DNA from: a virus
Virus record (IMG/VR): IMGVR_UViG_3300043409_001275
Coordinates: 1 to 64,000 of that record
Length of the DNA: 64,000 nucleotides
Direction: 5' to 3' (one strand)
This document shows, piece after piece, positions 721 to 57,839 of this stretch; within the stretch, counting starts at the first letter, position 1; every line of letters begins with the position of its first letter. A program made the position numbers and the translations under genes. Below the pieces are notes generated by a model, which was not told the DNA's origin, made no database searches, and saw only the letters and a list, made by a program, of their open reading frames with translations.

Positions 721-739
721 CATAAGAAATTGAACACTT

Positions 740-1453: not shown

Positions 1454-1455
1454 AA

Positions 1456-1746: not shown

Positions 1747-1883
1747 TACTTTTTTTCTTTTGCTTTAATCTTCTTTTCTTGCTCAAGCATTTCTGGTGTT
1801 GGCTTTTTACCGCTTCCCTTGCTAGCACGGATATTATTCCAAAGGCTATTTGCAACTCCTAGTTTGTTTAATTTTCCTTTCAT
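1746..1883 (-). CDS. 45-aa conserved small basic phage protein
   Basis: 45 residues, MKGKLNKLGVANSLWNNIRA then SGKKPTPEMLEQEKKIKAKEKK. The block NSLWNNIR...GSGKKPT is one I recognise as recurring in small proteins of unrelated tailed phages, usually next to the DUF6321-like protein as here. The stop and the next start overlap as TAATG. Function unknown; half of the C-terminal third is Lys or Glu. Confidence 0.6.
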   Translation of the reverse strand: MKGKLNKLGVANSLWNNIRASKGSGKKPTPEMLEQEKKIKAKEKK

Positions 1884-1892
1884 AGTACTAAA

Positions 1893-33313: not shown

Positions 33314-34005
33314 GAACATTATCAATCTGCGTACCTACTTGGAATAGAGTAGAAATGACATTAAATAGTTTTAAGGAAGTTTACAATGATGATAGGGTAG
33401 AAGCTATTGTTATCGTAGATGATGCAAGCGATGAGCATATTTATAACAAATTAAAAGAAGAGTGCGATAAATTATCTAAAGTTAAATTATATAGAAATTT
33501 GACTAATAGAGATTGTTATGCTAATAAGTATGTTTCTATTAGCTTATCCCCTACCAACTATTGCATTATATTAGACTCTGATAATCAAATAGATACACTA
33601 TATCTTGATAAGATTTTTGAACAAGAATGGGCGGAAGATATGATTTTAGCTCCAGATTGGGCAAAACCAACATTTAATTATACAGAGTATTCAAATTTAA
33701 TAGTCAGCAAAGACAACTTAAAAGAATATATAGATAAGCCAATGTTTGAAACTTGCTTAAATTGTATGAATTATTTTGTAAACAAAAATGCTTATTGTGA
33801 TGTTTGGGATGCTACAACAGACCCCGTAACAAGTGATAGCTTATTCCAAAATTATAATTGGCTAATGTCAGGTAAGTATATTCATATTGTTCACGGGTTA
33901 AGGTATAATCATTTGGTTCACAATCAATCTCATTATATAAATAATGTTCAAAGAACAGGTGATTTTAGAGAAATATTATTAGAAAAGATTAGGAAATTAA
34001 ATTAA
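33310..34005 (+). CDS. Glycosyltransferase family 2
   Basis: 231 residues, GT-A fold: SICVPTWNRVEMTLNSF (5-21), IVIVDDASDE (33-42) and IILDSDNQID (86-95) with the DxD pair at 89/91. The C-terminal part after about residue 150 has no known module. Cytosolic and inverting by family. Donor and acceptor cannot be read. Confidence 0.8.
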   Translation: MRTLSICVPTWNRVEMTLNSFKEVYNDDRVEAIVIVDDASDEHIYNKLKEECDKLSKVKLYRNLTNRDCYANKYVSISLSPTNYCIILDSDNQIDTLYLDKIFEQEWAEDMILAPDWAKPTFNYTEYSNLIVSKDNLKEYIDKPMFETCLNCMNYFVNKNAYCDVWDATTDPVTSDSLFQNYNWLMSGKYIHIVHGLRYNHLVHNQSHYINNVQRTGDFREILLEKIRKLN

Positions 34006-34022
34006 ATTAATTAATTTTACTT

Positions 34023-34760
34023 ATGGTATCTTTTACAAATGCGGGAAGAATGGGTAATTTTTTATTTGAATGTGCGACAGCCATAGCTTATGCTATAAAA
34101 CATGATTTAGAATTTACAGTCCCATTAGAAACAAGCAATCCAAAATGGAGTCCTATTTATTGTCATCATTTAATTGATAATACATATAATCCAAGTTTAG
34201 AGAAAATACAATTATGGGAAGGTAAGCACTCTTACGAGGAGTTGCCATTTGAAGAATCTTGGAGAGATAAAAATATTATTGTAGAGGGATACCGACAAAC
34301 TGCAAAATATTTTGATGAATACAGAAGTGAGATTTTATATTTATTAAAATTTGATTGGGTAAAGAAAGAAGGATATGTCGCAGTTCATGTGAGAAGAGGG
34401 GATTATGTTGAATTAAGACAAAAGCATCCAGAGGTAACGGTAGAATGGTACGAGAAGGCAATGGCTATGTTTCCTGATTGTAAATTTAAGTTTTTTTCAG
34501 ATGATATAGCTTGGTGTCAAAAAAAGTTTGCTCATAGAAATGATTGCGAATACTCTGGAAACGCAGATGAACAAAGTGATTTAATAGAAATGAGTTGGTG
34601 TGAGCATCAAATATGTAGCCCGTCTACATTTAGTTGGTGGGGAGCTTACTTAAACAGAAACGAAAATAAAAAAGTAATATTCCCGCAATTTTGGTTTAGC
34701 GAAGGATGGTGCGGATTAGATACAAGTGATATTGTAAAACCTGAATGGATAAAATTATGA
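34023..34760 (+). CDS. Glycosyltransferase family 11 (alpha-1,2-fucosyltransferase-like)
   Basis: 245 residues. NAGRMGNFLFECATAIAYA (6-24) and VHVRRGDYVE (121-130) are the two signatures of GT11 enzymes, the latter binding GDP-fucose. FFSDDIAWCQKKF and FSWWGAYLN near the end complete the pattern. GT11 enzymes add alpha-1,2-fucose to glycans. Phages may use host GDP-fucose; the cassette also holds a GDP-sugar-epimerase-like gene. Confidence 0.8.
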   Translation: MVSFTNAGRMGNFLFECATAIAYAIKHDLEFTVPLETSNPKWSPIYCHHLIDNTYNPSLEKIQLWEGKHSYEELPFEESWRDKNIIVEGYRQTAKYFDEYRSEILYLLKFDWVKKEGYVAVHVRRGDYVELRQKHPEVTVEWYEKAMAMFPDCKFKFFSDDIAWCQKKFAHRNDCEYSGNADEQSDLIEMSWCEHQICSPSTFSWWGAYLNRNENKKVIFPQFWFSEGWCGLDTSDIVKPEWIKL

Positions 34761-35344
34761 GTGAATTAATTATGTTTGATTTTCAGCATTTCTACCAAAG
34801 AATTGCAAAAGAGCTTCCTGACGATTGCAAAGTTTGTGAAGTTGGTGTTGCTAATGGCGATAGTGCCATTTATTTAGCACAAGAGATAAACCGACTTGGT
34901 AAAAAGTTTAAGCTGTATATGGTTGATAATATGGATTATGGTGGTTATTTGCAAATGAAAACTATATACCAAAACATTATAAAAAGCGGATTGGGGGAGT
35001 TTATTGAAGTAGTTCCATTTGAAAGTTTAGAGGCTGTAAAATTATTTAATGATGGTTATCTTGATTTTTGTTACATTGATTCGTCACATACTTACGAGGA
35101 AACTAAAAAAGAAATAAAAGCTTGGTATCCAAAGGTAAAAGATGAAAACATATTAGCAGGGCATGATTACAATGCTCCTGAAGTAATGAGAGCGGTTGAC
35201 GAAGTAGTTCCTAAAGTTTTTTTAAGAGATGAATTAGATGGGCAAACTTTTAATCCCGAAGATATTTTACATTCAGAAGATACTTTGAATAATTGGGGAT
35301 TATGGTGGTTTAAGAAACAATGGTATTTAAAATTAAATAAATAA
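34757..35344 (+). CDS. Class I SAM-dependent methyltransferase
   Basis: 195 residues with the start at 34757 chosen because it overlaps the previous stop as ATGA; an in-frame ATG lies 12 bases upstream. CEVGVANGDSAIYLAQEI is motif I for SAM binding, YMVDNMDYGGY gives the acidic post-I position and FCYIDSSHTYEETKKEI is typical of the Methyltransf_24 group found in sugar gene clusters. Probably O-methylates a sugar. Final target unknown. Confidence 0.7.
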   Translation: MSELIMFDFQHFYQRIAKELPDDCKVCEVGVANGDSAIYLAQEINRLGKKFKLYMVDNMDYGGYLQMKTIYQNIIKSGLGEFIEVVPFESLEAVKLFNDGYLDFCYIDSSHTYEETKKEIKAWYPKVKDENILAGHDYNAPEVMRAVDEVVPKVFLRDELDGQTFNPEDILHSEDTLNNWGLWWFKKQWYLKLNK

Positions 35345-35346
35345 TT

Positions 35347-36354
35347 ATGAAAACAGCATGTGTATTAGGCGGACACGGAATGATAGGTATGCAACTTGTA
35401 AACAGACTAAAGAAAGAAGGGGTTTGGGTGCGTTCGGTAGATATTAAGTTTCCTGAATTTTCGGAATCAAATGCAAACGATGTTTTAATAGCCGACTTAA
35501 GAAACATAAGCGAAGTTTCAAAAGCATTGTATGCCCCAAATCAAACTAGTATTTTTGACAAGGTTGGTAGTTTTGATGAGGTTTATATGTTAGCCGCTCA
35601 AATGGGTGGCGCTTTATATGTATTTACGGGAGATAATGATGCTGATATTATATACGATTCAACTATAATGAACTTGAATGTAGCAAAAAAAGCGTCAGAA
35701 TTTGGTGTAAAGAAATTATTCTTTTCTTCTAGTGCTTGCGCTTATTCGGAAAGATTACAAGAGGATTTGAATAGCGCATCTTTAAAAGAAAACACAGCTT
35801 GGGATGGTAAGCCTGATAGTGTTTATGGTATAGAAAAGCTAATATCAGAGCAGGTTTACGATTCATTTAGAAGGAATAAAGGTTTAGATATTAGAATAGG
35901 TAGATTTCACAATATATTTTCTCCAGAATGTACATACACAGGCGGCAGAGAAAAAGCTCCGGCAGCTGTTTGTAGAAAAGTTGCAGAAGCGGATACCGAA
36001 ATAGAAATATTTGGAGATGGATTGCAGCAAAGAAGTTTTTTATATATTGATGAATGTTTAGATGGTATTAGAAAATTAATGGATAGCGAATATGTTTATC
36101 CGGTAAATATCGGCTCTGATGAAATGATTTCTATTAACGATTTGGCTAAAATGGTTATTGAAATATCTGGTAAAAAATTATCAATTAAAAATGTACCATC
36201 AAACGCATTAGGCGTTAGAGGTAGAAACTCTAACAATGAATTGATACATGAAGTAACGAGTTGGCGACCTACTCAATCTTTGAAAACAGGAATGGAGAAA
36301 TTATACCATTGGGTAAGTGCAGAAGTAAATCAATATAAAAGCAAAGGCATATGA
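35347..36354 (+). CDS. NAD-dependent nucleotide-sugar epimerase (GDP-mannose 3,5-epimerase-like)
   Basis: 335 residues, extended SDR. GGHGMIGMQL (8-17) is the NAD-binding glycine motif; AAQMGG, SSSACAYSE and Y160xxxK164 (VYGIEK) are close to the GDP-mannose 3,5-epimerase/GDP-fucose synthase group, where the same AADMGG and SSACxYPE appear. Such enzymes make GDP-L-galactose, GDP-L-gulose or similar. This would supply an activated sugar to the neighbouring transferases. Donor specificity is inferred. Confidence 0.75.
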   Translation: MKTACVLGGHGMIGMQLVNRLKKEGVWVRSVDIKFPEFSESNANDVLIADLRNISEVSKALYAPNQTSIFDKVGSFDEVYMLAAQMGGALYVFTGDNDADIIYDSTIMNLNVAKKASEFGVKKLFFSSSACAYSERLQEDLNSASLKENTAWDGKPDSVYGIEKLISEQVYDSFRRNKGLDIRIGRFHNIFSPECTYTGGREKAPAAVCRKVAEADTEIEIFGDGLQQRSFLYIDECLDGIRKLMDSEYVYPVNIGSDEMISINDLAKMVIEISGKKLSIKNVPSNALGVRGRNSNNELIHEVTSWRPTQSLKTGMEKLYHWVSAEVNQYKSKGI

Positions 36355-36986
36355 TGATATCATTTGACTATTTAGTCGATAAACACAAATTGGATATAAA
36401 GGGAGTCTTGCATTTAGGGGCTTCTACGGGACAGGAAAGAGATGCATATGATAGCTATTGTAAGGGTTGGGTAATTTGGGTAGAAGCTATACCTAAAGTT
36501 TATTTAGACCTTCAGCAAAATATAAAATCATACCCACAGCAAACAGCCTATAATGCTTGTTTAAGTAATGTAGATGGCGATGAAGTCGTATTCAATGTAT
36601 CAAATAATGAAAGCCAAAGTTCATCAATTTTAGAGTTGGGCGTTCATGCATTGATTCATCCGGAAGTGCATTATATAGAGCAAATAGCTATGAAAACGCA
36701 AAGAGTAGATACATTACTAAAAGATGTAGACGTATCGACTATTAATTTTCTGAATGTAGACTTGCAGGGTGCAGAGCATTTAGCAATAGAAGGAATGGGC
36801 GATTTGATTAAAAATATTGACTACGCATTGCTTGAGGTTAATATGAAAGAAACGTATAAAGGGTGCATGTTGGTAGAGGAGCTTGATTATTTCATGCTAC
36901 AAAGGGGATTTGAAAGAGTTGAAACGGGGGAGTGGGTAGCCGAAACATGGACAGACGCATTATATATCCGTAAATACAAAATATGA
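36351..36986 (+). CDS. FkbM-family methyltransferase
   Basis: 211 residues. LHLGASTGQERDAYDS is the SAM motif, VDTLLKDVDVSTINFLNVDLQGAEHLAIEG is the characteristic FkbM block, and LLEVNMKETYKG follows. FkbM proteins O-methylate sugars or polyketides. It overlaps the neighbours by 4 bases at both ends, so it is firmly within the operon. Confidence 0.8.
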   Translation: MMISFDYLVDKHKLDIKGVLHLGASTGQERDAYDSYCKGWVIWVEAIPKVYLDLQQNIKSYPQQTAYNACLSNVDGDEVVFNVSNNESQSSSILELGVHALIHPEVHYIEQIAMKTQRVDTLLKDVDVSTINFLNVDLQGAEHLAIEGMGDLIKNIDYALLEVNMKETYKGCMLVEELDYFMLQRGFERVETGEWVAETWTDALYIRKYKI

Positions 36987-37801
36987 TACATATACCAGAA
37001 GAATTTATTCCAACAATAAATACAGTATATCCTTGGGAAAATGATATTATATTTGAAGATTGGGTTTCACACGAGCATATCCCAAACACTGAAAGGCATT
37101 ACCTTCCAATTCAATGGACAGCATATCATGTAAATAATAATTATGGTAATAATCCTGTAGCAAGAAAGCAATTACAAGACTATGTAGATAAGTTACCTAA
37201 AGATTTGAAATATTGGACTATTTGCCAATATGATGACGGGGTAATGACTGATTTTAAAGATTTAGATATTTTAGTCTTCAGTATGAGCAAAAAGACGGGG
37301 GTTGAAATTCCTTTATTGTGTAAGCCACATTCATACGAGTGGAATCATAGCAAGTCAATATTTGCATCATTTATTGGTACACATACGCATCCAATTAGGG
37401 AAAATGTATTTAACATACAGAATAAGGATTTTTATATTTCCGATAAGCAGCATGACATACAATCATTTTGCGATATAATCTCTCATTCATTATTTGGATT
37501 ATGTCCAAGAGGGTATGGGCTAAATAGTTTTAGAATAGCGGAATGTATGCAATACGAAACCATCCCCGTATATATTTCAGATGAATTTATTAGTTGCTTT
37601 GATGCTAATTTTGAAGACTATGGAATTATAATAGAAGAGAAGGATTCAAGTAAAATAGAAGAAATTTTAAAAAGCTACACTGATTTACAGATAGTAGATA
37701 AGCAGTTGAAAATCAAGGATATATACAATGAGTATTATACATACGAAGGGGCTTTTAATAAGATTAAAAACATTCTAAATGCAAATAGCAGTAATCCATA
37801 A
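36983..37801 (+). CDS. Exostosin-like (GT47) glycosyltransferase
   Basis: 272 residues. The C-terminal region SLFGLCPRGYGLNSFRIAEC then ETIPVYISDEF is the exostosin signature (CPRG...S.RL.E.....IPVI..D). The N-terminal half (WTAYHVNNNYGNN, YWTICQYDDGVMTDF) is like other small phage GT47 proteins. Likely adds a hexose or a uronic acid; the donor is unknown. Confidence 0.75.
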   Translation: MIHIPEEFIPTINTVYPWENDIIFEDWVSHEHIPNTERHYLPIQWTAYHVNNNYGNNPVARKQLQDYVDKLPKDLKYWTICQYDDGVMTDFKDLDILVFSMSKKTGVEIPLLCKPHSYEWNHSKSIFASFIGTHTHPIRENVFNIQNKDFYISDKQHDIQSFCDIISHSLFGLCPRGYGLNSFRIAECMQYETIPVYISDEFISCFDANFEDYGIIIEEKDSSKIEEILKSYTDLQIVDKQLKIKDIYNEYYTYEGAFNKIKNILNANSSNP

Positions 37802-38324
37802 TTTTGATTCGGCTACTAGATTTGATATGTTAATGCAGGAATTTAAAATTCAAGGCATAAGGGATTTTAAATTTTTCCCGGCAGTTCATGATAGTCATTC
37901 TGTTAAGAAGGCTATAAATTTAGCGCACAAACAATGCGTCAGGTATGCTTTAGACAACAATTTGCCTGAAATATGCATAATGGAAGACGATGTTCGTTTT
38001 ACTAACAAAAATAGTTTTTCTTATTTTTTAGAGCATAAACCTGAAGATTTTGATGTATATTTAAGTGGTATTTATTTAGGAGAGATTTTGAAGGATAATT
38101 CAGTAAAAGAGTTTTCTGGATTTCATTGCTACATTGTAAATAAAAAATTCTATGAAACTTACTTATCATTACCGGATGATGCTCACATTGACAGGGCGTT
38201 GGCAGGTCTTGGGAAGTATTATGTATCTAGCCCTTTTATAGCAATTCAACACAATGGATTTTCCTATAATACAAAAATGGAAATGAATTACGATGACCTT
38301 TTGATAGGAAGAGAATTATATTAA
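37779..38324 (+). CDS. Second glycosyltransferase family 25-like protein
   Basis: 181 residues, shorter than the first GT25-like protein. It shows CIMEDDVRF at 66-74 and a similar start (QIAVIHNFDSATRFDML), but lacks a full VINLxxRxxR signature. It overlaps the previous gene by 23 bases. Last gene of the cassette; an AT-rich gap with a promoter follows. Confidence 0.65.
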   Translation: MQIAVIHNFDSATRFDMLMQEFKIQGIRDFKFFPAVHDSHSVKKAINLAHKQCVRYALDNNLPEICIMEDDVRFTNKNSFSYFLEHKPEDFDVYLSGIYLGEILKDNSVKEFSGFHCYIVNKKFYETYLSLPDDAHIDRALAGLGKYYVSSPFIAIQHNGFSYNTKMEMNYDDLLIGRELY

Positions 38325-38343
38325 TTTAATTAATAAAATATAT

Positions 38344-38376
38344 TTTGTTTTTTTTATTTACTTTTAATTAATTTTG
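38344..38376 (+). promoter_or_regulatory. Promoter ahead of the homing endonuclease and portal genes
   Basis: TTTG (38344-38347), 21-base spacer and TAATTTTG (38369-38376), then GTAATAAA. The same -7 extension (TTTGGTAA) recurs at 45401 and 51166. Confidence 0.55.
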
Positions 38377-38393
38377 GTAATAAATTTTATTTA

Positions 38394-46489: not shown

Positions 46490-49400
46490 ATGGCAATACA
46501 ATCAATAATAACAGGTGATTTACAAATAAGGGACTTAAACGGAGTTCTTATTGCCAATAATGGTATAGTAACTTCTGTTGGAAATATAACTTCAGGAACA
46601 GCGGGAACTAGCGGTACTTCAGGTTCGGCAGGGACTTCGGGTACGGCAGGAACTAGTGGATTCGCAGGAACAAGCGCAAGAATTGTTTTTAATTATGTGG
46701 CGACAGCGGGGCAAACTACTTTTAATGTGCCTAGTGGTTATGAAAATGGGATGATTGATGTTTTTGTGAATGGGGTAAAATTATTTCCAAGCGATTATAC
46801 AGCGACAGATGGTTTCAATGTAATACTTAATAATCCTCTTCAAGCAGGTGATAATGTAGAGATTGATAATTTTGTATCTAGCTATGTGGCATCTTCAGGT
46901 ACTTCGGGTACAAGTGGAACAGCTGGTACTTCGGGTACAACAGGTACTTCTGGTATTGGTGGTGATAAATATTACACCATATCAGTTTCAATATTTACTT
47001 TAGGAACGGGTGGTTACTTAATGGTTTCACCCGGTTTATCATACTCTCCTGCACAATCAATTATAGTAGTACATGATAATACTCACTTTCAAGAATGTGA
47101 GGTTGTTTCTTATAATGTGGTTACAGGAGAAATAGTTTTTGGCGACCCTAGTAGGGTTGTCGGTGGTGGAACTTTTTCTAGTTGGGTAGTAAACCTAGAT
47201 GGTGCTTCAGGTGGTGATGGTACTTCAGGTACTTCAGGTTCAAGTGGTTCATCTGCTACTTCAGGTTCATCAGGAACTTCGGCTACTTCAGGAACTTCTG
47301 CTACTTCAGGAACTTCAGGTTCAAGTGGTAGTAGTGGCTCAAGTGGAAGCAGTGGCACTTCTGGTTCATCAGGAACGAGTGCAACTAGTGGTAGTTCAGG
47401 AACATCAGCAACTAGTGGGTCATCAGGCACATCAGGTGTTGATGGTACTTCTGGTATTAATGGTACTAGCGGTTCTTCAGCAACTAGTGGTAGTAGTGGT
47501 ACTAGCGGAACAACAGGAACTTCAGGTACGACAGGTACTAGTGGAACAGCAGGTACGACAGGTACTTCAGGTCTTTCAGGAGATAGATATAGAACAACAT
47601 CTACTACAACTTTTACTTTAGGTAATGCAGGAACTTTAACAGTAGGAACACTATTGGGATATAGCCCTGCTCAATCAATTATAGTGGTTTATGACCCTTC
47701 AAACTTCCAAGAGTGTGAGGTAGTGTCTTATGATGCAAATACAGGCGTTTTAATATTCCTTGCTCCTACTAGAACAGTGGGTAGTGGAACTTATAGCTTA
47801 TGGACAGTGAACTTGGATGGCGCGAGTGGTGGTGATGGTTCAAGTGGTACTTCAGGCACTTCTGCAACAGCAGGAACGAGCGGTACAACAGGCACTAGTG
47901 GTACGACAGGCACAAGCGGTACAACAGGAACGAGTGGTACAACGGGTACTTCAGGAACGACAGGAACGAGTGGTACAACGGGTACAAGCGGTATCAATGG
48001 TGTATCAACTAATTTATTCTTATACGAAGCTGACGCAAATACTTTTACGGGTGCGCCTTCAAGTGGGCATATTCTTTGGAATAATGCAACACAGATAAGT
48101 GCTACCCAAATAAACATAAATCACTTAACAGATACCCCGATAACAGATATTGATATATTTATAGCTTTATGGCAAACAGGGCAAAAATTAACAATACAAG
48201 ACAGAAGCAATTCAGCTAACTATCAAGTATGGACAATTAGCGCTACCCCTATTTATGTTTCTCCAACTTATTGGACAATACCTGTTACATTGGTATCATC
48301 AGCAGGAACGGGAACAACAGGGTTTGCTAATAACCATCCAATATTTGTAGCTACATCCGCCTTTAGCGGAACTTCAGGAACTACAGGGACTAGTGGCACA
48401 ACAGGGACTAGTGGCAGCAGTGGTTCAAGCGGAACTACGGGGACAAGCGGTACAACAGGTACTTCAGGTTCAAGTGGCTCTTCGGGTTCTAGTGGCTCTA
48501 GCGGTAGTAGTGGTTCAAGCGGTTCAAGTGGTACAAGTGGTCTTTCAGGTACTTCAGGTGCGCAAGGGACTAGTGGAACAACTCCCGTAGGTGTAATTAC
48601 AGGTTCAGGAACAAGTGGCTACCTACCTAATTTTACAGGTGCAAGTACAATAGGTAATAGTTTAATCCAAGACAATGGAACAGGTGTTGGTATTAGTACA
48701 TCGCCTACTGCTGGTTATCTTTTAGATGTATATGGTACTGCTACATTTGGTGCTAGTGCAACAGTTGGCAATAAAGTACATATTGGTAGCGGTGCAGTTC
48801 CTTCTGGTGCAGCTGGTATTGGTTTATGGGCTACAGGAAGTAATTTATTTAGTATTGTAGGTTTTGGAGATACAACATTAGATTCAAGAGGTTCATATTT
48901 ATTAATAAATCCTAATGGTGGAAATGTAGGTATAAATAATTCATCCCCTAGTTATCAGCTAGATGTTAATGGTACAGGAAGGTTTAGTGGGCAATTGAGT
49001 TCTACTATGGGCAACAATACATTAATTTTTAAATCTCAAACTGCAACTACAGGGTATCAATATATAAATCTTTCTAATACTTCAGGTAGTTTATTATTAG
49101 GGATAGAAGGAACGGCAGCAGGTAGTTTATTGACAGGAGGTTCTGCTTATGCAACAGTTTTAACATCAGGAACTGCAACAAATCTTGAATTTGGTACTAA
49201 CCAAGTATTAAGATTAAAGTTAGATGGCTCTACAGGAGCAGCTACATTCTCTAGTAGTGTAACGGCATTAGGTGGAATAAATGGTTATTCAGGTTTAAAC
49301 GGATATGCAGGCGTTACGCATAATTTTTTTGTAGATTGGTCTGCTGAATCACAAATAACAACTTTAACTGCAACAAATTTATTTTTTGGTACAAATGCTC

Positions 49401-50815
49401 AAAGGAGAATGACTATTACAAGTGGAGGCAATGTATTAATAGGAACTACTACTGATGCAGGCTACAAGCTAGATGTTAATGGTACAGGAAGATTTAGTGG
49501 TAATGTTGTTTTAAGTGGTAGTGATTCAAGGTTTAATGGTGGTGATTCAGTTGGTAGATTAATTATGTCAAATTCAAACACAACTACTTACATAGGATTG
49601 TATGGTGCAACTCATCCAACTTTACCTTATGTAATGTCGTTTGTAGTAAATAGTGCATCTGCCTTGTCCATAGCATCCACAGGAGCAGCTACATTCTCAA
49701 GTAGTGTAACGGCAGATAGGGTTTTAACTGCCAATAAAACAAATAATAGTACATTAGTTGCAGGTAGTATTGAAATACAATCTTACGCTTTAAATAATAG
49801 TTGGGTAGGTGATAATCTTTATTTTGATGGGGCTGCATTTCTAGCTAGGAATACAGGATATACATCTCAAATATATTTTCAAACTGATGGAAGTATTCAG
49901 TTTAAAACAAGTCCTTCAACTGTTACTTCAGGTTCAGCATCAAATAGTACTCCAAGACTTACCATAGCATCCACAGGAGCAGCTACATTCTCTAGTAGTG
50001 TTCAAGGAACAATTTTAACTGCAACATCTTATTTTACATCAGATTATTATAGAGATAGTAGATTGGAAGCATTATTATTATACGCTGGTTCTAATCAAAT
50101 TAGATTAGGTAGCGGTGTTGCTGCTGACTTTTTAACATTTTATGGTGGGGGAAGCGAAAGAATGCGTATTACAAGTGCAGGTTTAGTTTCTATAAATGGT
50201 TTAGCAGCATCTACAAATTATAAATTAGGTGTAACAGGAGCAGCGTATATTGAAGGAACTAATAGCAAGGGTATATTTTTTACCGACCAAGCATCGCATT
50301 CTTCAATAGTAGGAATAAATAGTGGAATATCTTCTTATAATAGTATGGAATTAAGGGCTAGTGGAACTGATGGTCAATTATTTTTAATAACATCTGGTAA
50401 TGTAAGTATAAAAACAAAAACTGATTTTGGGTATGCTTTAAACTTAAATGGTCAGCCTGGTGCAAATGGGTATACCGCTTGGACAAACTGGTCAGATTCA
50501 AGATTAAAAGAAAATGTAACTGACTTGGAAGTTACTAATGTATTAGATAAAATTAATAGAATAAGACCAGTAACATATAATTACAACGAACTATCAGGCT
50601 TTGATGAAACCACAAGAGCAAGAAGAATATCAGGATTTATAGCTCAAGAATTAATGGAGGTATTCCCTGATATGGTTGGTACAATTAAAAAAGAAGATGT
50701 TGAATATTATGATACTAATTTATCTAATTTAACTTTGTACTTGGTAAAAGCCATCCAAGAGCAACAAAAACAAATTGAAGAACTTAAACAAATTGTAGCT
50801 ACAATTAATAAATAA
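46490..50815 (+). CDS. Long collagen-like tail fibre with S74 chaperone end
   Basis: 1441 residues. Gly-X-Y triplet blocks of Gly, Thr and Ser lie at about 35-65, 135-155, 245-363, 453-505 and 630-700. Two copies of an 85-residue beta module (158-244, 364-450) separate them. A beta-helical shaft with repeated YKLDVNGTGRFSG and TGAATFSSSV motifs covers 740-1300. The C-terminus (from about 1334: WSDSRLKENV, then ISGFIAQELMEVFPDMV) is a peptidase S74 intramolecular chaperone, which trimerises fibres and cuts itself off at the Ser/Lys site. Receptor-binding fibre; the triplets are also candidate glycosylation sites. Confidence 0.85.
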   Translation: MAIQSIITGDLQIRDLNGVLIANNGIVTSVGNITSGTAGTSGTSGSAGTSGTAGTSGFAGTSARIVFNYVATAGQTTFNVPSGYENGMIDVFVNGVKLFPSDYTATDGFNVILNNPLQAGDNVEIDNFVSSYVASSGTSGTSGTAGTSGTTGTSGIGGDKYYTISVSIFTLGTGGYLMVSPGLSYSPAQSIIVVHDNTHFQECEVVSYNVVTGEIVFGDPSRVVGGGTFSSWVVNLDGASGGDGTSGTSGSSGSSATSGSSGTSATSGTSATSGTSGSSGSSGSSGSSGTSGSSGTSATSGSSGTSATSGSSGTSGVDGTSGINGTSGSSATSGSSGTSGTTGTSGTTGTSGTAGTTGTSGLSGDRYRTTSTTTFTLGNAGTLTVGTLLGYSPAQSIIVVYDPSNFQECEVVSYDANTGVLIFLAPTRTVGSGTYSLWTVNLDGASGGDGSSGTSGTSATAGTSGTTGTSGTTGTSGTTGTSGTTGTSGTTGTSGTTGTSGINGVSTNLFLYEADANTFTGAPSSGHILWNNATQISATQININHLTDTPITDIDIFIALWQTGQKLTIQDRSNSANYQVWTISATPIYVSPTYWTIPVTLVSSAGTGTTGFANNHPIFVATSAFSGTSGTTGTSGTTGTSGSSGSSGTTGTSGTTGTSGSSGSSGSSGSSGSSGSSGSSGTSGLSGTSGAQGTSGTTPVGVITGSGTSGYLPNFTGASTIGNSLIQDNGTGVGISTSPTAGYLLDVYGTATFGASATVGNKVHIGSGAVPSGAAGIGLWATGSNLFSIVGFGDTTLDSRGSYLLINPNGGNVGINNSSPSYQLDVNGTGRFSGQLSSTMGNNTLIFKSQTATTGYQYINLSNTSGSLLLGIEGTAAGSLLTGGSAYATVLTSGTATNLEFGTNQVLRLKLDGSTGAATFSSSVTALGGINGYSGLNGYAGVTHNFFVDWSAESQITTLTATNLFFGTNAQRRMTITSGGNVLIGTTTDAGYKLDVNGTGRFSGNVVLSGSDSRFNGGDSVGRLIMSNSNTTTYIGLYGATHPTLPYVMSFVVNSASALSIASTGAATFSSSVTADRVLTANKTNNSTLVAGSIEIQSYALNNSWVGDNLYFDGAAFLARNTGYTSQIYFQTDGSIQFKTSPSTVTSGSASNSTPRLTIASTGAATFSSSVQGTILTATSYFTSDYYRDSRLEALLLYAGSNQIRLGSGVAADFLTFYGGGSERMRITSAGLVSINGLAASTNYKLGVTGAAYIEGTNSKGIFFTDQASHSSIVGINSGISSYNSMELRASGTDGQLFLITSGNVSIKTKTDFGYALNLNGQPGANGYTAWTNWSDSRLKENVTDLEVTNVLDKINRIRPVTYNYNELSGFDETTRARRISGFIAQELMEVFPDMVGTIKKEDVEYYDTNLSNLTLYLVKAIQEQQKQIEELKQIVATINK
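46590..48585 (+). repeat. Gly-Thr-Ser-type triplet repeats in fibre 1
   Basis: Blocks of 9-bp units coding GTS, GSS, GTT, GIN and similar triplets. Synonymous codons are mixed, so the array is old enough to be shuffled at the DNA level while the protein period of three is kept. Collagen-like geometry (Gly every third residue) is nearly unbroken within each block. The reverse strand is open over these stretches only because of the repeat. Confidence 0.85.
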
Positions 50816-50834
50816 ATAAAAAACAAAATAAAAT

Positions 50835-51137
50835 ATGAAGACAATCTCTCCAGTGGTATTCCCACTAAATTTAGGAACTGCAACAGTGCTTAACGCTTAT
50901 TGCATTAATGACAATTTAAGCACTTCAGCTACCTTTTATTATGCACTTTTAAGTGATACTATGGCACAGCTTTCTCAAGGCAACTTGAATATGACAGGTC
51001 AAGATTATGCTGATTGGCAAACCAACCAATATGCCTATGACTGGATTGCAACTCAAATTGATGTAACCATCACAGGCGATTATGTACCTCCAGTACCTCC
51101 AGTAGTAGAAGAAGTTGCTCCAACAAATAGTTTATAG
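50835..51137 (+). CDS. Small fibre-associated protein
   Basis: 100 residues. MKTISPVVFPLNLGTATVL is followed by LSTSATFYYALLSDTMAQ, QDYADWQTNQYAYDW and a Pro/Glu/Val-rich end (VPPVPPVVEEV). The pattern is typical of small proteins next to tail-fibre genes in Bacteroidetes phages. Possibly a fibre assembly factor; function unproven. Confidence 0.45.
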   Translation: MKTISPVVFPLNLGTATVLNAYCINDNLSTSATFYYALLSDTMAQLSQGNLNMTGQDYADWQTNQYAYDWIATQIDVTITGDYVPPVPPVVEEVAPTNSL

Positions 51138-51142
51138 CCTTA

Positions 51143-51173
51143 TTTGTTAATTGAATAAATTAACATAATTTTG
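51143..51173 (+). promoter_or_regulatory. Promoter for the second fibre transcript
   Basis: TTTG (51143-51146), 19-base spacer, TAATTTTG (51166-51173), then GTAAAAAT. The best -33/-7 pair in the window; ATG at 51190. Confidence 0.65.
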
Positions 51174-51189
51174 GTAAAAATTTTAAATT

Positions 51190-51363
51190 ATGAACAACGA
51201 ACCAAAACAATTACCGGTACCATCATTAACAGCTGAACAAGTTCAACTATTGGTAAATCTTGCACTTGAAATGCCTACTAAATATGGTAGTGAAATTTTA
51301 AAAGTAATTGAAAAAGCAGCTTTTGATATAGAAAAGGCTGCTCAAGCTCCTAAAGTAGAATAA
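51190..51363 (+). CDS. 57-aa hypothetical protein
   Basis: 57 residues, MNNEPKQLPVPSLTAEQVQ then a helical stretch EILKVIEKAAFDIEKAAQAP. It is short, but has a good promoter, an A-rich leader and a normal stop, and it lies 10 bases before the next fibre gene. No family recognised. Confidence 0.55.
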   Translation: MNNEPKQLPVPSLTAEQVQLLVNLALEMPTKYGSEILKVIEKAAFDIEKAAQAPKVE

Positions 51364-51373
51364 AAAGAATAAA

Positions 51374-53284
51374 ATGAGTAAAAATACAGTCATCAGTGAA
51401 ATAGCTAATGTATCAGGATTAGTAAAACAAGTCGGTACAAGTGGTTTTTCAACTGCAATCCCAAATGTAGATTATCAACTACCAATTAGTTTAACCACAT
51501 TCGGGGTGACTGGACCCGCTACTTTTAGTAGCAATGTATTAAATATTCCTATTTATGGCTCTAGTGGAACTACGGGTACTTCAGGCACTAGTGGAATAGG
51601 TACTTCAGGCACTAGTGGTAATGGAACATCAGGCTCATCTGGTTCTTCAGGCTCAAGTGGAAGCTCTGGCTCTTCGGGGTCAAGTGGTTCTTCAGGCTCA
51701 TCAGGAACTAGCGGTATTAATGGTACATCAGGAACTACGGGTACTTCAGGAACTACTGGCACATCGGGTTCTAGTGGGTCTAGCGGAAGCTCTGGTTCTT
51801 CAGGTTCTAGTGGTTCAAGTGGAAGCTCTGGCTCTTCTGGTTCTAGCGGTTCATCAGGAACAACGGGAACTAGCGGTTCATCAGGTACAACAGGAACATC
51901 AGGTACTACTGGTGTAAATGGCATTAATGGAGATAAGTATTTAACCACTTCAGCTACATCTTTTACTCTAGGAAATTCAGGAACAGTAACTGTTGGAACA
52001 GGATTGGCTTATAGCTCCGCTCAAAGTATATTGATTTCTTACGATGGCAGTAATTATCAAATATCAGCTGTAACATCTTACAATAGCATAACAGGTAGTT
52101 TATCTTTCGGTTCACCAAGTACAACAGTTGGTTCAGGTACATATAACTCTTGGACTGTAAACCTAGCAGGTGCAAGTGGTGGAGATGGTAGCTCTGGTAG
52201 TAGCGGTACTTCGGGAGTTGCAGGAACAAGTGGAGTCAATGGAACAAGTGGATTAAACGGAACAAGTGGGATAAATGGTACTAGCGGTACAAGAGGTACA
52301 AGTGGGGTAAGTGGTTCTTCAGGAACATCAGGTGTAAATGGAGGCAATGGCTCATCAGGGACATCAGGAATTAATGGTATAAGCGGAACTAGTGGTATAA
52401 ACGGAATTAATGGTACTTCAGGTATCAATGGCGTAAACGGTACTTCAGGAAATAGCGGTTCAAGTGGTAGTAGCGGTTCAAGTGGCGTAAGTGGTTCATC
52501 AGGTTCATCAGGAATCAATGGTGCCAATGGAACAAGCGGTATCAACGGAACAAGTGGAATAAACGGAACAGCAGGGATTAGCGGTACTTCTGGAGGTAAT
52601 GGTACTTCTGGAATTAATGGTATTAATGGTACTTCAGGAATTAATGGCTTAAACGGAACATCAGGTATTAATGGCGGAAATGGTAGTTCTGGGACTTCGG
52701 GCGCACAAGGCGGAAATGGTAGTTCTGGGACTTCGGGCGCAAATGGTTTAAATGGCTCATCAGGAACAAGCGGAATAAATGGTATTAATGGTACAAGTGG
52801 TATCAACGGAATCAACGGCACATCGGGTATAAATGGTGTCAATGGCACTTCGGGAAATAGTGGTAGTTCAGGAACTTCAGGAGCTAATGGAACAGGGTTT
52901 ACTTCTATCTCACCAACCAATGTAGGATACGTCCTTTTAGCCAATGGAACATCTAATAGTGCAACAGGAAGCTCATCCGTTTATGTAACAAGTACTAGTC
53001 AGTTAAATGCTGGTTCTTTTTATGAAACTTCTGATATAAGATTTAAAAACGTACTTGAAACAAACCCATCCATAGATTTACCATTAGATGTAATTAAATT
53101 CACTAGAACAGATGAAAATAGTGATGCAATTAGATATGGCTATTCAGCTCAACAAGTACAATCATACCTTGCAGATGTAGTTTCAGGAAATGAAAAATTA
53201 GTCGTAAACTATTCAGATATACACACATTAAAAATAGCAGCCCTAGAGAAAAGAATTGCAGAACTTGAAGCCAAATTGAAATAA
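51374..53284 (+). CDS. Second collagen-like tail fibre with S74-type end
   Basis: 636 residues. Start STVI-like segment with GLVKQVGTSGFSTAIPNVDYQ (14-34), a Gly-Ser/Thr triplet block (about 62-180), one copy of the 85-residue module also found twice in fibre 1 (187-272), then a longer block with many GIN, GVN and GLN triplets (about 275-510). The C-terminal 90 residues begin SDIRFKNVLETNPS and end in a short coiled coil (LEKRIAELEAKL), a compact S74-like chaperone. Confidence 0.75.
   Translation: MSKNTVISEIANVSGLVKQVGTSGFSTAIPNVDYQLPISLTTFGVTGPATFSSNVLNIPIYGSSGTTGTSGTSGIGTSGTSGNGTSGSSGSSGSSGSSGSSGSSGSSGSSGTSGINGTSGTTGTSGTTGTSGSSGSSGSSGSSGSSGSSGSSGSSGSSGSSGTTGTSGSSGTTGTSGTTGVNGINGDKYLTTSATSFTLGNSGTVTVGTGLAYSSAQSILISYDGSNYQISAVTSYNSITGSLSFGSPSTTVGSGTYNSWTVNLAGASGGDGSSGSSGTSGVAGTSGVNGTSGLNGTSGINGTSGTRGTSGVSGSSGTSGVNGGNGSSGTSGINGISGTSGINGINGTSGINGVNGTSGNSGSSGSSGSSGVSGSSGSSGINGANGTSGINGTSGINGTAGISGTSGGNGTSGINGINGTSGINGLNGTSGINGGNGSSGTSGAQGGNGSSGTSGANGLNGSSGTSGINGINGTSGINGINGTSGINGVNGTSGNSGSSGTSGANGTGFTSISPTNVGYVLLANGTSNSATGSSSVYVTSTSQLNAGSFYETSDIRFKNVLETNPSIDLPLDVIKFTRTDENSDAIRYGYSAQQVQSYLADVVSGNEKLVVNYSDIHTLKIAALEKRIAELEAKLK
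51550..52895 (+). repeat. Gly-X-Y triplet repeats in fibre 2
   Basis: Two blocks of 9-bp units on either side of the shared beta module. The second block is rich in GIN, GVN, GLN and GGN triplets and has a near-exact 36-bp tandem duplication around 52674-52745 (GGNGSSGTSGA twice), so unequal exchange is recent. Confidence 0.8.
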
Positions 53285-55038
53285 TGAAAGCTAATAACTA
53301 CCTAGTAACTTGGACTGACTTAAGTACTATGGGCTTAACCGCTAGAGGAACACCTCCTACCGGATTAGCTATTGCTAATAAAGCTGAATTGATTGCTGCT
53401 TATTATGTAGACCAATCGGCTTCCCCATTTTCTACTTATGCATCAAACAGATGCCCTAGATATCAGGATATAGTTGCATTAGATATACCTTCGCTTTCCG
53501 TATGGGGTGCTAGGGATTCTTATAGTGGGTTTTCGATTAATGCAGGATTAGTATTTACTAACTATTCAGGATTAACTACTAATGATGTTTATAATGCAAT
53601 AGGAGTAAGTAATGATGGAGTTTATGTATGTATTTCAAAAGATTTTGGTTTTTCCGATAATGGGAGATTGATGATATCCAATAATAGCGGCTCAACATTT
53701 ACAGCGATTAGTTTTTATTTTGGTTCGCCATCTAATACAGATATTGTGTTTGGAAAAGTGGGTGTGTCATTCACAGGTCAGTACATGATGGCAATTGTTT
53801 GTAGCACCCCTCCCGGTGGCGGAAGAATTATTGGCTTTTACGGGTCAAGTAATTATGGAAGTAGTTGGACTCCAATAGATTCTAAAAATACTAGTTCGGT
53901 TGGCAATTGCGGTATGTCGCAAAATGGAAGATATCAAACATTTGTATGGTTTTTAAGCGGTGATTCATATAGATATTATTCAACAGATTTTGGTTCGAGT
54001 TGGACATTATCTAGCGCCTTTTCAACAACTCTTTATACTGATATAAAAATGTCAAATACGGGATTATATCAGATAATTTCAGGATATAATGGAGGTACAG
54101 GAGGAGGAAGAATATACGCAAGCTCTAATTCAGGGGGCAGTTTTACAGAGCGCATTTACGATGCAAGTTATTCTATGGATTTTGTGGCTATGACAGATGA
54201 TGGAGTTTATCAAATAGGGATGGGCAAGAGTGGGAAATATTATATTTCAACAGATTCGGGTGCGACATTCCCAATAACAGGAATTATTTCTGGTGGTATT
54301 ATAACATCAATAGCAATGACTGCTTATGATTATGGTTCAACTCCATATATAATGGCTTACTCTTCTAATCAAGCGTATGTATATATTTCAAAATCTCCGT
54401 TTTCATCATGGAGTGCAGTGCCTATAGATAATGTTATTTCTTGGAATAATATACAAAGTAGGGCAATAGTCTATCCATACACACCTGAATTAATTCCTTT
54501 AGAATATTCTTATACATTATACTACGACTATAATGATACACTACCTGTTGTAATAGGATTTACAGTTGCAGATGATGCTTGTTCGGCAGTTAATTCATTT
54601 ACCGTATATTCTAATTATAGCCCTATAAGTGTAGGCGCAACTCTTTATTATGATATTTATGGAACAACAGAAATAGAAGCTGTTCCAAGTAGCGCAGCAT
54701 CTCAAAATTATTATGCAATAGGGAATAACATAATACAATTTTCTGATAATTATACTATTGACTCAATAACATCATGTCCAGTATATGCAGGAGATGTTTG
54801 GTTTGGTACTTATTCAGGCGAAGCTTGTAGCGAAAGTAGTCCACAACAATATTTATATTGGGAAGGAAGCCAATTATTCTACAATGGATTAGTTTTATAT
54901 ACAGATATGGCATTATTATTCCCTTACAATAATACAAGCGGATATACATATTGTAGAAGTGATGGTAGCGGTGGAGGGTTTGATGAATTTAATTTAAGCG
55001 GGGATACATTAGGTTCAGCTACAGGAGTTGCTTGTTAA
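53284..55038 (+). CDS. BNR/sialidase-type propeller spike protein
   Basis: 584 residues. Repeated Asp-box motifs (SxDxGxxW/F) such as YYSTDFGSSWT, ISTDSGATF, ASSNSGGSFT and GSSNYGSSWT between residues about 130 and 380 predict a beta-propeller of the sialidase/VPS10 type. No clear catalytic Arg triad was seen, so it may bind rather than cut glycans. N-terminal 80 residues (TWTDLSTMGLTARGTPPTG) may attach to the fibre; the end carries a Cys/Tyr-rich module (ACSAVNSFTVYSNYSPI, then CSESSPQQYLYWEGSQ). Its start overlaps fibre 2's stop by one base, and its stop overlaps the convergent gene by 4. Confidence 0.65.
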   Translation: MKANNYLVTWTDLSTMGLTARGTPPTGLAIANKAELIAAYYVDQSASPFSTYASNRCPRYQDIVALDIPSLSVWGARDSYSGFSINAGLVFTNYSGLTTNDVYNAIGVSNDGVYVCISKDFGFSDNGRLMISNNSGSTFTAISFYFGSPSNTDIVFGKVGVSFTGQYMMAIVCSTPPGGGRIIGFYGSSNYGSSWTPIDSKNTSSVGNCGMSQNGRYQTFVWFLSGDSYRYYSTDFGSSWTLSSAFSTTLYTDIKMSNTGLYQIISGYNGGTGGGRIYASSNSGGSFTERIYDASYSMDFVAMTDDGVYQIGMGKSGKYYISTDSGATFPITGIISGGIITSIAMTAYDYGSTPYIMAYSSNQAYVYISKSPFSSWSAVPIDNVISWNNIQSRAIVYPYTPELIPLEYSYTLYYDYNDTLPVVIGFTVADDACSAVNSFTVYSNYSPISVGATLYYDIYGTTEIEAVPSSAASQNYYAIGNNIIQFSDNYTIDSITSCPVYAGDVWFGTYSGEACSESSPQQYLYWEGSQLFYNGLVLYTDMALLFPYNNTSGYTYCRSDGSGGGFDEFNLSGDTLGSATGVAC

Positions 55039-57839
55039 ATAGGTAGCTTATCTATAACCATTTGACCGGTAATTGATTTAGTACACTCAAATTGTCTATC
55101 AGTATCTTTATAGTCTTCACACCAATTCCAATCAGCAGGATTTAGTCGGTATCTATTAAAGCATCCACTACATTTCCCTTCGGGTGCAGATATCCTAATG
55201 CAATCTTCTACTTCAGCAAAAGGCTCTGAAAATCCACTTATAATAGCAGTAGGAACACCTAACGACCAAGATAACCAAGATAGACCACTTCCTATGCCTA
55301 TAAATAGCTCCGATTTAAGCATTTCTTCCATAACTGACTCAATGCTACCATTGGGATGTAGAACTACGCCATTTGGGGCTATATTGCCCATATAATCTAT
55401 TCCTTCTTTAGATAATAGTTTAACCACATACCCTTTTCCTAGTAGATAATCCACAACTTCTTGCCATCCCGTAGGGTTATTCCAATACTTTGCTTGAGCA
55501 GTTGAATGAATGGCTATAACCACTTGCTTCACTTTTTCTACCTTTTTTACCTTTAATTTGGCTCTAATTTCCTTGTATTCCAAGCCTAATATGTTGGTGG
55601 CAGACTTCTGCATTGGTATTGTGTGCGGTACTTCAGGCTCTCTATCTTCATTATAAAACCATCCAACCCTATATAAACCATAGATGTTTTGAACTACTGT
55701 CCCCGGCTTTACAAATTCTAGTTCTGGATAGTCAAAAATATCATTCCAAAATGTACTGCAAATCACCGTACAATTATGTTTCTTTTTAAATTCTAGGGCA
55801 TACGGAACCCAAGCCAAAGTATCTCCCAATGATTTACTTTCAAGCGTTATCAAGACCCTTTTACCTTCGTAGTTTAATGTGTTTTCATGGATTAATTTAC
55901 CTTCATCCCATATCTTAAGTTTCCAATTGGTAAACCATTGTCTGTTTAATTTAACCCAATTATTGACATCAATGTGGTTATTATAGACGCATTTGCCATT
56001 GTCATCATAGTATTCAACATAAAATCTTTTATCTATAACTACCTTATCTCTTTGTTCATTATTGGTATAATCTATTCCTTCAACATCTACCTTGTTGTTT
56101 TTCTTTAGGTCTGACATTAAAAGTTCCTTGATATTGTAATCACTTTGTTTTAGGAAATTATAGAATTTAACTTCCAATATATTAAAGGATGTTCCGCTAG
56201 TATAATAGTCTTTTTTATCTTTAAATTTAGTCACAAAAGAATGTATAGCGTCTATTCTAGCTGAAAAGAAAGCAGAGCAATAAGAATTTTCCTCGTAGCT
56301 AGTGCTACCATACTTATAAACTACAAAATCTTCCGTATCTAGTGCTTTAAGATTATCATTAATGGTGGCTTTTGAAAGCTCGTAATCATAGTTTATAATG
56401 TTTACTTTTTTATACCCTAGTTTTTTCGCATACTCAACGCCATTACGCATTAAAGTATAAACACAATACCCATGCTCTTTTTCAAATAGCTCATATATTT
56501 TTTCCCCTTTTTCATTTGTATGGAAATGGTAAAAAGCTACACCATACTTATCAAATTCATCCTTATAAAGCAATGGGTTTTCTTTTGTATAAATAACATA
56601 ATCACATAATGATTGAGCATCTTCTTCTACAGGATAGTTTACAGATAGGATAATATTAGTGTTCAATCTGTTTAAACAATTCTTTAATAGCTGTTTTCTA
56701 AAGTCATTATTAGGATGTGCAAGTACTATGGACACTGCATCTTTATCCCTTTTATCAAATGGGTTGACGCCTTTAATCTCTAAAAAAGGTTGGTCAACAA
56801 AATGTTGAATTATAATAGGCTTTTGCTCTTTTAAGGGCAATTCTAATAGCTTTTTATAGGCTTCTTCATGTCTTAATCCAAAGGTCAATGAGGTATTATC
56901 AGTAGGTACTTTGTAATTACATTCTAAATTATTTAAATCAGTATCAATAGGATTAATATAATCATCATACATTCCCGCATATTGAGGTAGATTACGAGCA
57001 ACAATAGGAAGTCCATTAGCAATAGCTTCACGCAATACCAATGGATTAAGCTCCCAAGTAGAATTGAACATAAAGATATCAGCCGCCATCATGAATAAAG
57101 ATATATCGCTTCTTTCTCCCCATACCTTTACATTTTTAGGCAAATCATTCATTAATGGTCGCCAATAATCCTCAAAATTACCCGCTTGATTACCAATAAA
57201 ATGGAACATCATATCAGGATACTTACGAGCAATCTCAATGCCTTCTTTTTGATTCTTGCCCGGAGTCCATAAGCCTACATTAATAACATGTTTCTTATTC
57301 CCTTCAAACCCTAATTCAGCTCTTGATACCCATCTGTTAGTAGTAAATTGTATATCAATTGGATAAGGTATAGTTACAAATTTAGCATCTAATCCTGCAA
57401 AAATATTCTCATGCCAAGGGGTGCAGAAAGCGTACATATCAGGATGAAAGCGTTTCTCTTCATGTGGTTTAAAGTTGGAATTATGGCAGGTTTCAACGAT
57501 TCTCCACTTTCTATCATTACGATACAAATCAGTGAAAAGCCTATCATTATTCGTTGACTCTGGCATTTCATCTAGGTGGACAATATCTATCTCTTCAGTC
57601 CTCACTATTTCCATCACCCTCATCTTATTCTCACCAAGGCTAAAGAAATTATCCCCCACTAACTTCATTATTTGATTTCTTTGTACGGGGAAAATCTTGC
57701 CATAATCATCATATTCAGCAACAAATATCTCAAACGAATCAGTATAATCTAGTAATGTTTGAATGCGTTTTAACACAAATTGAGGCATCCCCCCCGTTGA
57801 AATGTGGCTCATCAAGTAGAGCAGTTTAATCTTTTTCAT
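55035..57839 (-). CDS. Fused glycosyltransferase: GT4, middle domain and TibC/BAHT-like heptosyltransferase
   Basis: 934 residues. The N-terminal 340 (LMSHISTGGMPQFVLKRIQ, NVGLWTPGKNQKEGIEIARK, PLVLREAIANGLPIVARN) is a GT4 type. The middle (about 365-590) resembles a GT-A-like or unknown sugar enzyme. The C-terminal 330 (VLITLESKSLGDTLAWVPYA, VVIAIHSTAQAKYWN, LFIGIGSGLSWLSWSLG) is a GT9-like fold of the autotransporter O-heptosyltransferase (BAHT/TibC) kind, with a four-cysteine cluster C890, C893, C907, C919 where TibC has its iron finger. That family puts heptose on Ser/Thr of repeat-rich surface proteins. It lies tail-to-tail with the Ser/Thr-rich fibre genes. Confidence 0.75.
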   Translation of the reverse strand: MKKIKLLYLMSHISTGGMPQFVLKRIQTLLDYTDSFEIFVAEYDDYGKIFPVQRNQIMKLVGDNFFSLGENKMRVMEIVRTEEIDIVHLDEMPESTNNDRLFTDLYRNDRKWRIVETCHNSNFKPHEEKRFHPDMYAFCTPWHENIFAGLDAKFVTIPYPIDIQFTTNRWVSRAELGFEGNKKHVINVGLWTPGKNQKEGIEIARKYPDMMFHFIGNQAGNFEDYWRPLMNDLPKNVKVWGERSDISLFMMAADIFMFNSTWELNPLVLREAIANGLPIVARNLPQYAGMYDDYINPIDTDLNNLECNYKVPTDNTSLTFGLRHEEAYKKLLELPLKEQKPIIIQHFVDQPFLEIKGVNPFDKRDKDAVSIVLAHPNNDFRKQLLKNCLNRLNTNIILSVNYPVEEDAQSLCDYVIYTKENPLLYKDEFDKYGVAFYHFHTNEKGEKIYELFEKEHGYCVYTLMRNGVEYAKKLGYKKVNIINYDYELSKATINDNLKALDTEDFVVYKYGSTSYEENSYCSAFFSARIDAIHSFVTKFKDKKDYYTSGTSFNILEVKFYNFLKQSDYNIKELLMSDLKKNNKVDVEGIDYTNNEQRDKVVIDKRFYVEYYDDNGKCVYNNHIDVNNWVKLNRQWFTNWKLKIWDEGKLIHENTLNYEGKRVLITLESKSLGDTLAWVPYALEFKKKHNCTVICSTFWNDIFDYPELEFVKPGTVVQNIYGLYRVGWFYNEDREPEVPHTIPMQKSATNILGLEYKEIRAKLKVKKVEKVKQVVIAIHSTAQAKYWNNPTGWQEVVDYLLGKGYVVKLLSKEGIDYMGNIAPNGVVLHPNGSIESVMEEMLKSELFIGIGSGLSWLSWSLGVPTAIISGFSEPFAEVEDCIRISAPEGKCSGCFNRYRLNPADWNWCEDYKDTDRQFECTKSITGQMVIDKLPI

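What the first reader, a model, noticed from the sequence alone, without database searches (positions are those of the whole stretch)
46490..57839. Candidate phage-encoded O-glycosylation of its own collagen-like fibres
Two fibre genes (46490-50815, 51374-53284) carry hundreds of Gly-Thr/Ser-Ser triplets. Directly convergent with them is a 934-aa glycosyltransferase whose C-terminal third has the GT9-like fold features of the TibC/BAHT autotransporter O-heptosyltransferases, including a four-cysteine cluster (C890, C893, C907, C919; CX2C-X13-C-X11-C) where TibC has its iron finger. In bacteria that family glycosylates Ser/Thr in repeat-rich surface proteins. Family 25 enzymes, which include collagen glycosyltransferases, are also present elsewhere in the cassette. 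Together these suggest a self-contained virion glycosylation system. I know of no established phage tail-fibre system of this kind, but I could not search for one.
Basis: partly seen in the sequence, partly recalled or inferred. Interest (0 to 1): 0.88.

Follow-up and report, generated by a model that had tools for sequence, protein, structure and literature searches.

The report
Phage enzyme sugar-coating its collagen-like fibres
This virus of bacteria carries a TibC-like sugar-attaching enzyme beside its collagen-like fibre genes; the same pairing recurs in many unrelated phages and in some bacteria, so the enzyme very probably coats Gly-Thr/Ser-Ser repeats with sugar, though no sugar has yet been measured.

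Summary
Observation confirmed. The 934-aa protein (55035-57839, minus) has a C-terminal domain (aa 586-931) matching TIGR04414 (AAH/TibC) at 5e-71, above the curated cutoff. An AlphaFold2 model lies on TibC (TM 0.85), far from generic GT9 (0.55 or less). All four iron-finger cysteines and the catalytic Asp673 align.

New evidence links enzyme and repeats. Around 51 non-redundant phage homologues, Ser/Thr-rich collagen-like genes fall from 0.173/kb within 1 kb to 0.008/kb at 6-10 kb. Contigs chosen only for seven consecutive G-[ST]-[ST] triplets carry the enzyme in 24 of 50 cases; contigs chosen for Gly-Pro-X repeats, 0 of 44. In methylotroph bacteria the same enzyme branch lies 13-141 bp from a secreted GTSGTSG-repeat gene (7 of 8).

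This branch is sister to the autotransporter enzymes (100/100 split) and has lost the adenine-contacting Arg286 (kept in 1 of 61, against 12 of 12), so the donor sugar is open. Most likely the C-terminal domain O-glycosylates fibre triplets in the cytoplasm and the fused GT4 and GT-A-like domains extend the glycan. The GT25 collagen-lysine idea is not supported. No glycan has been shown; I found no published report of this system.

The parts
55035..57839 (-). 934-aa three-domain glycosyltransferase
   Evidence: ORF; Pfam GT4 + GT9, NCBIfam TIGR04414
56958..57839 (-). N-terminal GT4 (GT-B) glycosyltransferase region, aa 1-294; proposed glycan elongation
   Evidence: PF00534 9.5e-13 at aa 169-291
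56094..56750 (-). Middle domain aa ~364-582, GT-A-like (nucleotide-diphospho-sugar transferase fold); proposed glycan elongation
   Evidence: AF2 pLDDT about 78-96 per 10-residue block over most of this stretch (one block 67), whole-model mean 68.7; Foldseek best 3cgx 1.9e-6 and other GT-A hits, TM 0.3-0.55: fold only, weak
55047..56084 (-). C-terminal TibC-like domain, aa 586-931; proposed initiating O-glycosyltransferase
   Evidence: TIGR04414 239.6 bits; TibC 4rap 1.5e-50; model pLDDT 92.5, TM 0.85 to 4rap
55083..55172 (-). Iron-finger cysteines C890, C893, C907, C919 (aa 890-919)
   Evidence: Aligned with TibC C339/342/358/370; invariant in all 73 homologues examined
55821..55823 (-). Catalytic base Asp673 (TibC Asp110)
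   Evidence: Invariant in 73 of 73; role in TibC from PMC4358343
46490..50815 (+). Collagen-like tail fibre, 98 G-X-Y triplets, C-terminal Peptidase_S74 chaperone; proposed substrate
51374..53284 (+). Collagen-like tail fibre, 121 G-X-Y triplets; proposed substrate
53284..55038 (+). 584-aa protein between fibre and enzyme, possible beta-propeller-type tail protein (SxNxGxSW-like repeats); role unknown
   Evidence: weak NF045728 2.7e-5
32687..38324 (+). Eight-gene sugar cassette between terminase and portal: GT25, GT2, GT11, methyltransferase, NAD-epimerase, FkbM methyltransferase, GT47, GT25; possible glycan extension or decoration
   Evidence: Pfam; all five cassette-bearing relatives of 57 kb or more also carry the TibC-like gene

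Best explanation
The 934-aa enzyme glycosylates the phage's own collagen-like fibres in the host cytoplasm. Its C-terminal TibC-like domain attaches the first sugar to Ser/Thr of the Gly-[Thr/Ser]-[Ser/Asn] triplets. The fused GT4 and GT-A-like domains, and probably the eight-gene cassette, then lengthen and decorate it. The result would be proline-free collagen-like shafts densely covered with sugar, which could stiffen them, protect them from proteases, or mask or modulate binding. Shown here: the enzyme's family, fold, catalytic and iron-finger residues, and the genomic link to Ser/Thr triplets in phages and bacteria. Inferred: that the fibre is the acceptor, the order of sugars, and the benefit. 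Open: which sugar, since the residue that contacts adenine in TibC is lost.
For: Profile, sequence and fold all point to TibC, a protein O-glycosyltransferase, not LPS GT9. D110, T226, K230, W305 and the four Cys are conserved in all 61 phage and collagen-type enzymes aligned. S/T-collagen gene density falls 0.173, 0.104, 0.038, 0.018, 0.008 per kb with distance in 51 non-redundant loci; 20 of 29 clusters at 70% identity have one within 5 kb. This includes distant phages: Microcystis phage Mel-JY01 and a 735-kb phage. Bacteria: the same branch lies 13-141 bp from an exported GTSG-repeat gene in 7 of 8 methylotroph genomes, the eighth next to a poly-Ser version of the same protein; canonical-branch enzymes in the same bacterial family lie by autotransporter repeats instead. 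Triplets: 89% T/S at X, 63% S and 25% N at Y, Thr at Y only 3%, almost no Pro or Lys.
Against: No glycan has been observed. About half of the GTS-run contigs show no TibC-like gene (26 of 50), and 8 of 10 GTS-positive control contigs lack it, so the pairing is not obligatory, although most are fragments. Some phage homologues have no collagen-like gene within 10 kb, and the 636-kb phage LR756504 has no such repeat run in its whole record. Arg286 is lost and the beta-hairpin thumb shortened: donor and oligomer may differ from TibC. The window domain scores 240 bits against 480-663 for canonical members.
Confidence: 0.75

Rival explanations
1. The enzyme and the sugar cassette modify the host surface (LPS or capsule) to block superinfection, and lie near the fibre genes only because both belong to a host-interaction module.
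For: Phage glycosyltransferases are often interpreted this way (PMC7029224); the window also has GT2, GT11, GT25, GT47.
Against: The closest enzyme is protein-specific TibC. Association is with the S/T composition of the collagen, not with collagen in general (24/50 vs 0/44). Bacterial pairs with secreted GTSG proteins have no evident phage context.
Confidence: 0.12
2. The enzyme O-glycosylates a different virion protein (for example the 584-aa neighbour or another tail protein), and the collagen-like fibres are merely neighbours.
For: Some phage homologues lack a nearby collagen-like gene but have other large S/T-rich structural genes; one bacterial partner is poly-Ser, not Gly-periodic.
Against: The feature shared by phages and bacteria is the GTS/GSS repeat, in both search directions.
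Confidence: 0.08
3. A sub-case of the main explanation: a conventional TibC/AAH-type heptosyltransferase, using ADP-heptose and a ring-shaped dodecamer, simply captured with a new substrate.
For: Catalytic and most donor residues and the iron finger are kept; ADP-heptose exists in Gram-negative hosts (established knowledge).
Against: Arg286, which contacts adenine, is lost in 60 of 61; thumb loop three or more residues shorter; separate branch in the tree. These affect donor and oligomer only, so this overlaps with the main explanation rather than excluding it.
Confidence: 0.4

Closest known systems
TibC / AAH autotransporter heptosyltransferases (TIGR04414; PMC4358343)
   Same: Fold (TM 0.85), catalytic Asp, Thr226, Lys230, Trp305, four-Cys iron finger; linked to repeat-rich S/T substrates
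   Different: Separate branch, Arg286 lost, thumb shortened, fused to GT4 and GT-A-like domains, partner is a collagen-like fibre rather than an autotransporter beta-helix
BclA of the Bacillus anthracis exosporium and other glycosylated collagen-like proteins (cited in PMC3368898)
   Same: Collagen-like triplets carrying oligosaccharide side chains (literature)
   Different: From my own knowledge BclA uses Pro-containing GPT triplets and rhamnose-type glycans; I know of no TibC-like enzyme there (not tested)
Mycobacteriophage virion glycosylation (Freeman et al. 2023, as cited in PMC12619734)
   Same: Glycans on phage virion proteins, attributed to phage glycosyltransferases
   Different: There the C-termini of capsid and tail-tube subunits are modified; no collagen-like fibre
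E. coli prophage collagen-like proteins EPclA/B (PMC3368898)
   Same: Phage side-fibre collagen-like domains
   Different: Pro- and charge-rich, reported unglycosylated as recombinant protein

Membership tests
BAHT / TIGR04414 (autotransporter heptosyltransferase) | Score over curated cutoff (200 bits) | tested here: met
   239.6 bits, aa 586-931
BAHT / TIGR04414 (autotransporter heptosyltransferase) | TibC fold rather than generic GT9 | tested here: met
   TM 0.85, rmsd 2.7 to 4rap; WaaC and other GT9 0.55 or less
BAHT / TIGR04414 (autotransporter heptosyltransferase) | Four-Cys iron finger | tested here: met
   C890/893/907/919 aligned; invariant in 73 of 73. Iron itself not testable
BAHT / TIGR04414 (autotransporter heptosyltransferase) | Catalytic Asp110 and donor residues Thr226, Lys230, Trp305 | tested here: met
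   D673, T780, K784, W855
BAHT / TIGR04414 (autotransporter heptosyltransferase) | Arg286, adenine contact | tested here: not met
   Val836; R in 12 of 12 canonical, 1 of 61 phage/collagen type
BAHT / TIGR04414 (autotransporter heptosyltransferase) | Beta-hairpin thumb needed for dodecamer (F265, V266) | tested here: inconclusive
   Y816, M817; loop three residues shorter in most, more in one clade
BAHT / TIGR04414 (autotransporter heptosyltransferase) | Falls within the canonical (TibC-containing) clade | tested here: not met
   Split from it by a 100/100 branch of length 0.97
BAHT / TIGR04414 (autotransporter heptosyltransferase) | Partner is a strand-loop-strand autotransporter | tested here: not met
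   Neighbours are collagen-like fibres
BAHT / TIGR04414 (autotransporter heptosyltransferase) | Heptosyltransferase activity with ADP-heptose | not testable with these tools
   Needs biochemistry
GT25 collagen (hydroxylysine) glycosylation | Lys in the triplets and a lysyl hydroxylase | tested here: not met
   Window triplets about 0.01 Lys each; no hydroxylase among the genes scanned

The most novel reading that the evidence does not exclude
A second branch of TibC-like enzymes, shared by phages and bacteria, is a general O-glycosylation system for proline-free Gly-Thr/Ser-Ser collagen-like repeats. It may use a donor other than ADP-heptose, and the glycan may take the place of proline and hydroxyproline in stabilising the fibre.
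Probability: 0.35. Interest if true: 0.9.

Novelty: new variant of a known kind. Interest (0 to 1): 0.8.

Why it matters
It would give a function to GTSG-type collagen-like fibre genes, seen here in many phage contigs, and to a phage enzyme family found in at least 577 IMG/VR contigs. It would be a new type of virion glycosylation, on fibres rather than capsid or tail tube, with consequences for phage adsorption and stability. It also defines a testable enzyme-substrate pair with a short repeat sequon, potentially useful for making glycosylated collagen-like proteins in bacteria, and it corrects the automatic label 'autotransporter heptosyltransferase' for this branch. At least one carrier, Microcystis phage Mel-JY01, has a named host, so the question looks directly testable.

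Tried and rejected
GT25 as collagen-lysine glycosyltransferase: rejected, almost no lysine in triplets. Mel-JY01 'cytidylyltransferase' as ADP-heptose synthase: no NCBIfam match, only a borderline CTP_transf_like hit. Window epimerase as heptose epimerase: best match GDP-fucose synthase, below cutoff. GT25 and GT11 searches as neutral controls: they returned mostly the same phage group, so I used terminase and Gly-Pro-X controls instead. Literature searches for phage tail-fibre glycosylation with collagen-like proteins or heptosyltransferases found no such system; the library lacks most subscription papers.

Full report
Observation. The window is 64 kb of a 70,128-base IMG/VR virus record. The fibres hold 98 and 121 Gly-X-Y triplets in runs and match Pfam Collagen; the first ends in a Peptidase_S74 chaperone, typical of tail fibres. 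A 584-aa gene separates the fibres from the enzyme gene, which overlaps it by 4 bp tail to tail.

The enzyme. NCBIfam places aa 586-931 in TIGR04414 (hepto_Aah_TibC) at 5e-71, 239.6 bits against a cutoff of 200. phmmer against PDB finds only TibC, 1.5e-50. An AlphaFold2 model from 54 homologues has mean pLDDT 92.5; Foldseek gives TibC 4rap at TM 0.85, rmsd 2.7, and then a sharp drop to WaaC and other GT9 at 0.55 or less. By the eLife TibC paper (PMC4358343) the iron is held by C339, C342, C358 and C370, the base is D110, and donor contacts are T226, K230, R286 and W305. In our alignment all of these except R286 are kept: C890, C893, C907, C919, D673, T780, K784 and W855, invariant in all 61 phage and collagen-type sequences, while R286 is Val836 here and Arg in only 1 of 61, against 12 of 12 in the canonical branch. 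The thumb loop that joins TibC dimers into a ring is shorter. So donor and oligomer should not be assumed to be those of TibC. The rest of the protein is a GT4 domain and a middle domain of GT-A type by weak fold match, which suggests that glycans longer than one sugar are built.

Link to the repeats in phages. The first search gave 13 relatives, most with a convergent collagen-like gene nearby. In 51 non-redundant loci the density of S/T-rich collagen genes falls from 0.173/kb within 1 kb to 0.008/kb at 6-10 kb; terminase-centred control loci show no such peak. The pairing holds in distant phages: in Mel-JY01 a 202-triplet frame lies 1.7 kb away, and in the 735-kb LR756501 a 44-triplet gene lies next to the GT genes. 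From the other side, contigs chosen only for seven consecutive G-[ST]-[ST] triplets carry the enzyme in 24 of 50 cases, contigs chosen for Gly-Pro-X repeats in 0 of 44 (Fisher 1.5e-8). The share rises with contig length: 5 of 20 under 50 kb, 10 of 18 at 50-100 kb, 9 of 12 over 100 kb (table). Of 33 control records, selected by terminase (28) or by cassette-GT relatives (5), two have the enzyme and both have the repeats.

Link in bacteria. The genome scan found six bacterial loci, five of them with an S/T-rich collagen-like gene within about 110 bp. In 201 genomes of the methylotroph family, eight enzymes of the 300-330-bit type lie 13-141 bp from a signal-peptide GTSG-repeat protein in seven cases; the eighth has a poly-Ser version of the same protein. 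Enzymes of the 654-663-bit canonical type in the same family lie by SGG-repeat autotransporter-like genes. This is a natural control: enzyme branch and partner type go together. In the wider canonical set such neighbours were seen for about six of eleven within the flanks available, so the label 'autotransporter-linked' is not verified for every member. The maximum-likelihood tree separates the 12 canonical from the 61 phage and collagen-type enzymes by a 100/100 branch of length 0.97; rooting is arbitrary.

The repeat. Over 7279 triplets from enzyme-bearing phages, X is Thr or Ser in 89%, Y is Ser in 63% and Asn in 25%, Thr at Y only 3%, with almost no Pro or Lys. A likely acceptor is therefore the X-position Thr/Ser, but this is inference. 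Thr glycosylation is known to stabilise collagen in other systems (cited in PMC3368898), so a stabilising role in proline-free shafts is plausible and untested.

The cassette. Eight sugar genes lie between terminase and portal. All five cassette-bearing relatives of 57 kb or more also have the TibC-like gene. They may extend or decorate the glycan. No pathway for the initiating donor was identified in the window.

Limits. There is no chemical evidence of sugar. The association is not obligatory, some branches have no collagen-like gene nearby, and LR756504 has no such repeat run in its record. Contigs are fragments and partly redundant. Labelling rests on repeat patterns. The literature library is open-access only.

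Verdict. Observation confirmed; central interpretation supported as the best explanation (0.75). I file it as a TibC-like sister branch, not as an autotransporter heptosyltransferase, because Arg286, the tree position and the partner type were tested and not met.

Noticed in passing
L016 (Microcystis phage Mel-JY01 PP395634) 1-3052: The record starts inside a collagen-like fibre frame (202 G-X-Y triplets, + strand), but the deposited annotation shows a minus-strand hypothetical CDS 739-2298 over it and only a 3' piece as a gene: probable misannotation.
   Followed up: partly
window 32687-38927: Sugar cassette plus an HNH/NUMOD4 homing endonuclease inserted between terminase large subunit and portal.
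   Followed up: partly
window 53284-55038: 584-aa protein with SxNxGxSW-type repeats (possible beta-propeller or Asp-box), weak glycosylhydrolase family match.
   Followed up: no
window 10244-11092: GroES-like co-chaperonin match next to structural genes.
   Followed up: no
window 19158-30314: 3718-aa protein without any PHROG match; role unknown.
   Followed up: no
L024, L044 and related loci: Phage TibC-like branches without a collagen-like gene within 10 kb; at least one (contig 3300032213_001568, loci L048 and L405) has GTS repeats elsewhere in the record.
   Followed up: partly
NCBIfam TIGR04414: The equivalog cutoff also admits the phage and collagen-linked branch, so automatic annotation as 'autotransporter heptosyltransferase' will mislabel it.
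   Followed up: yes
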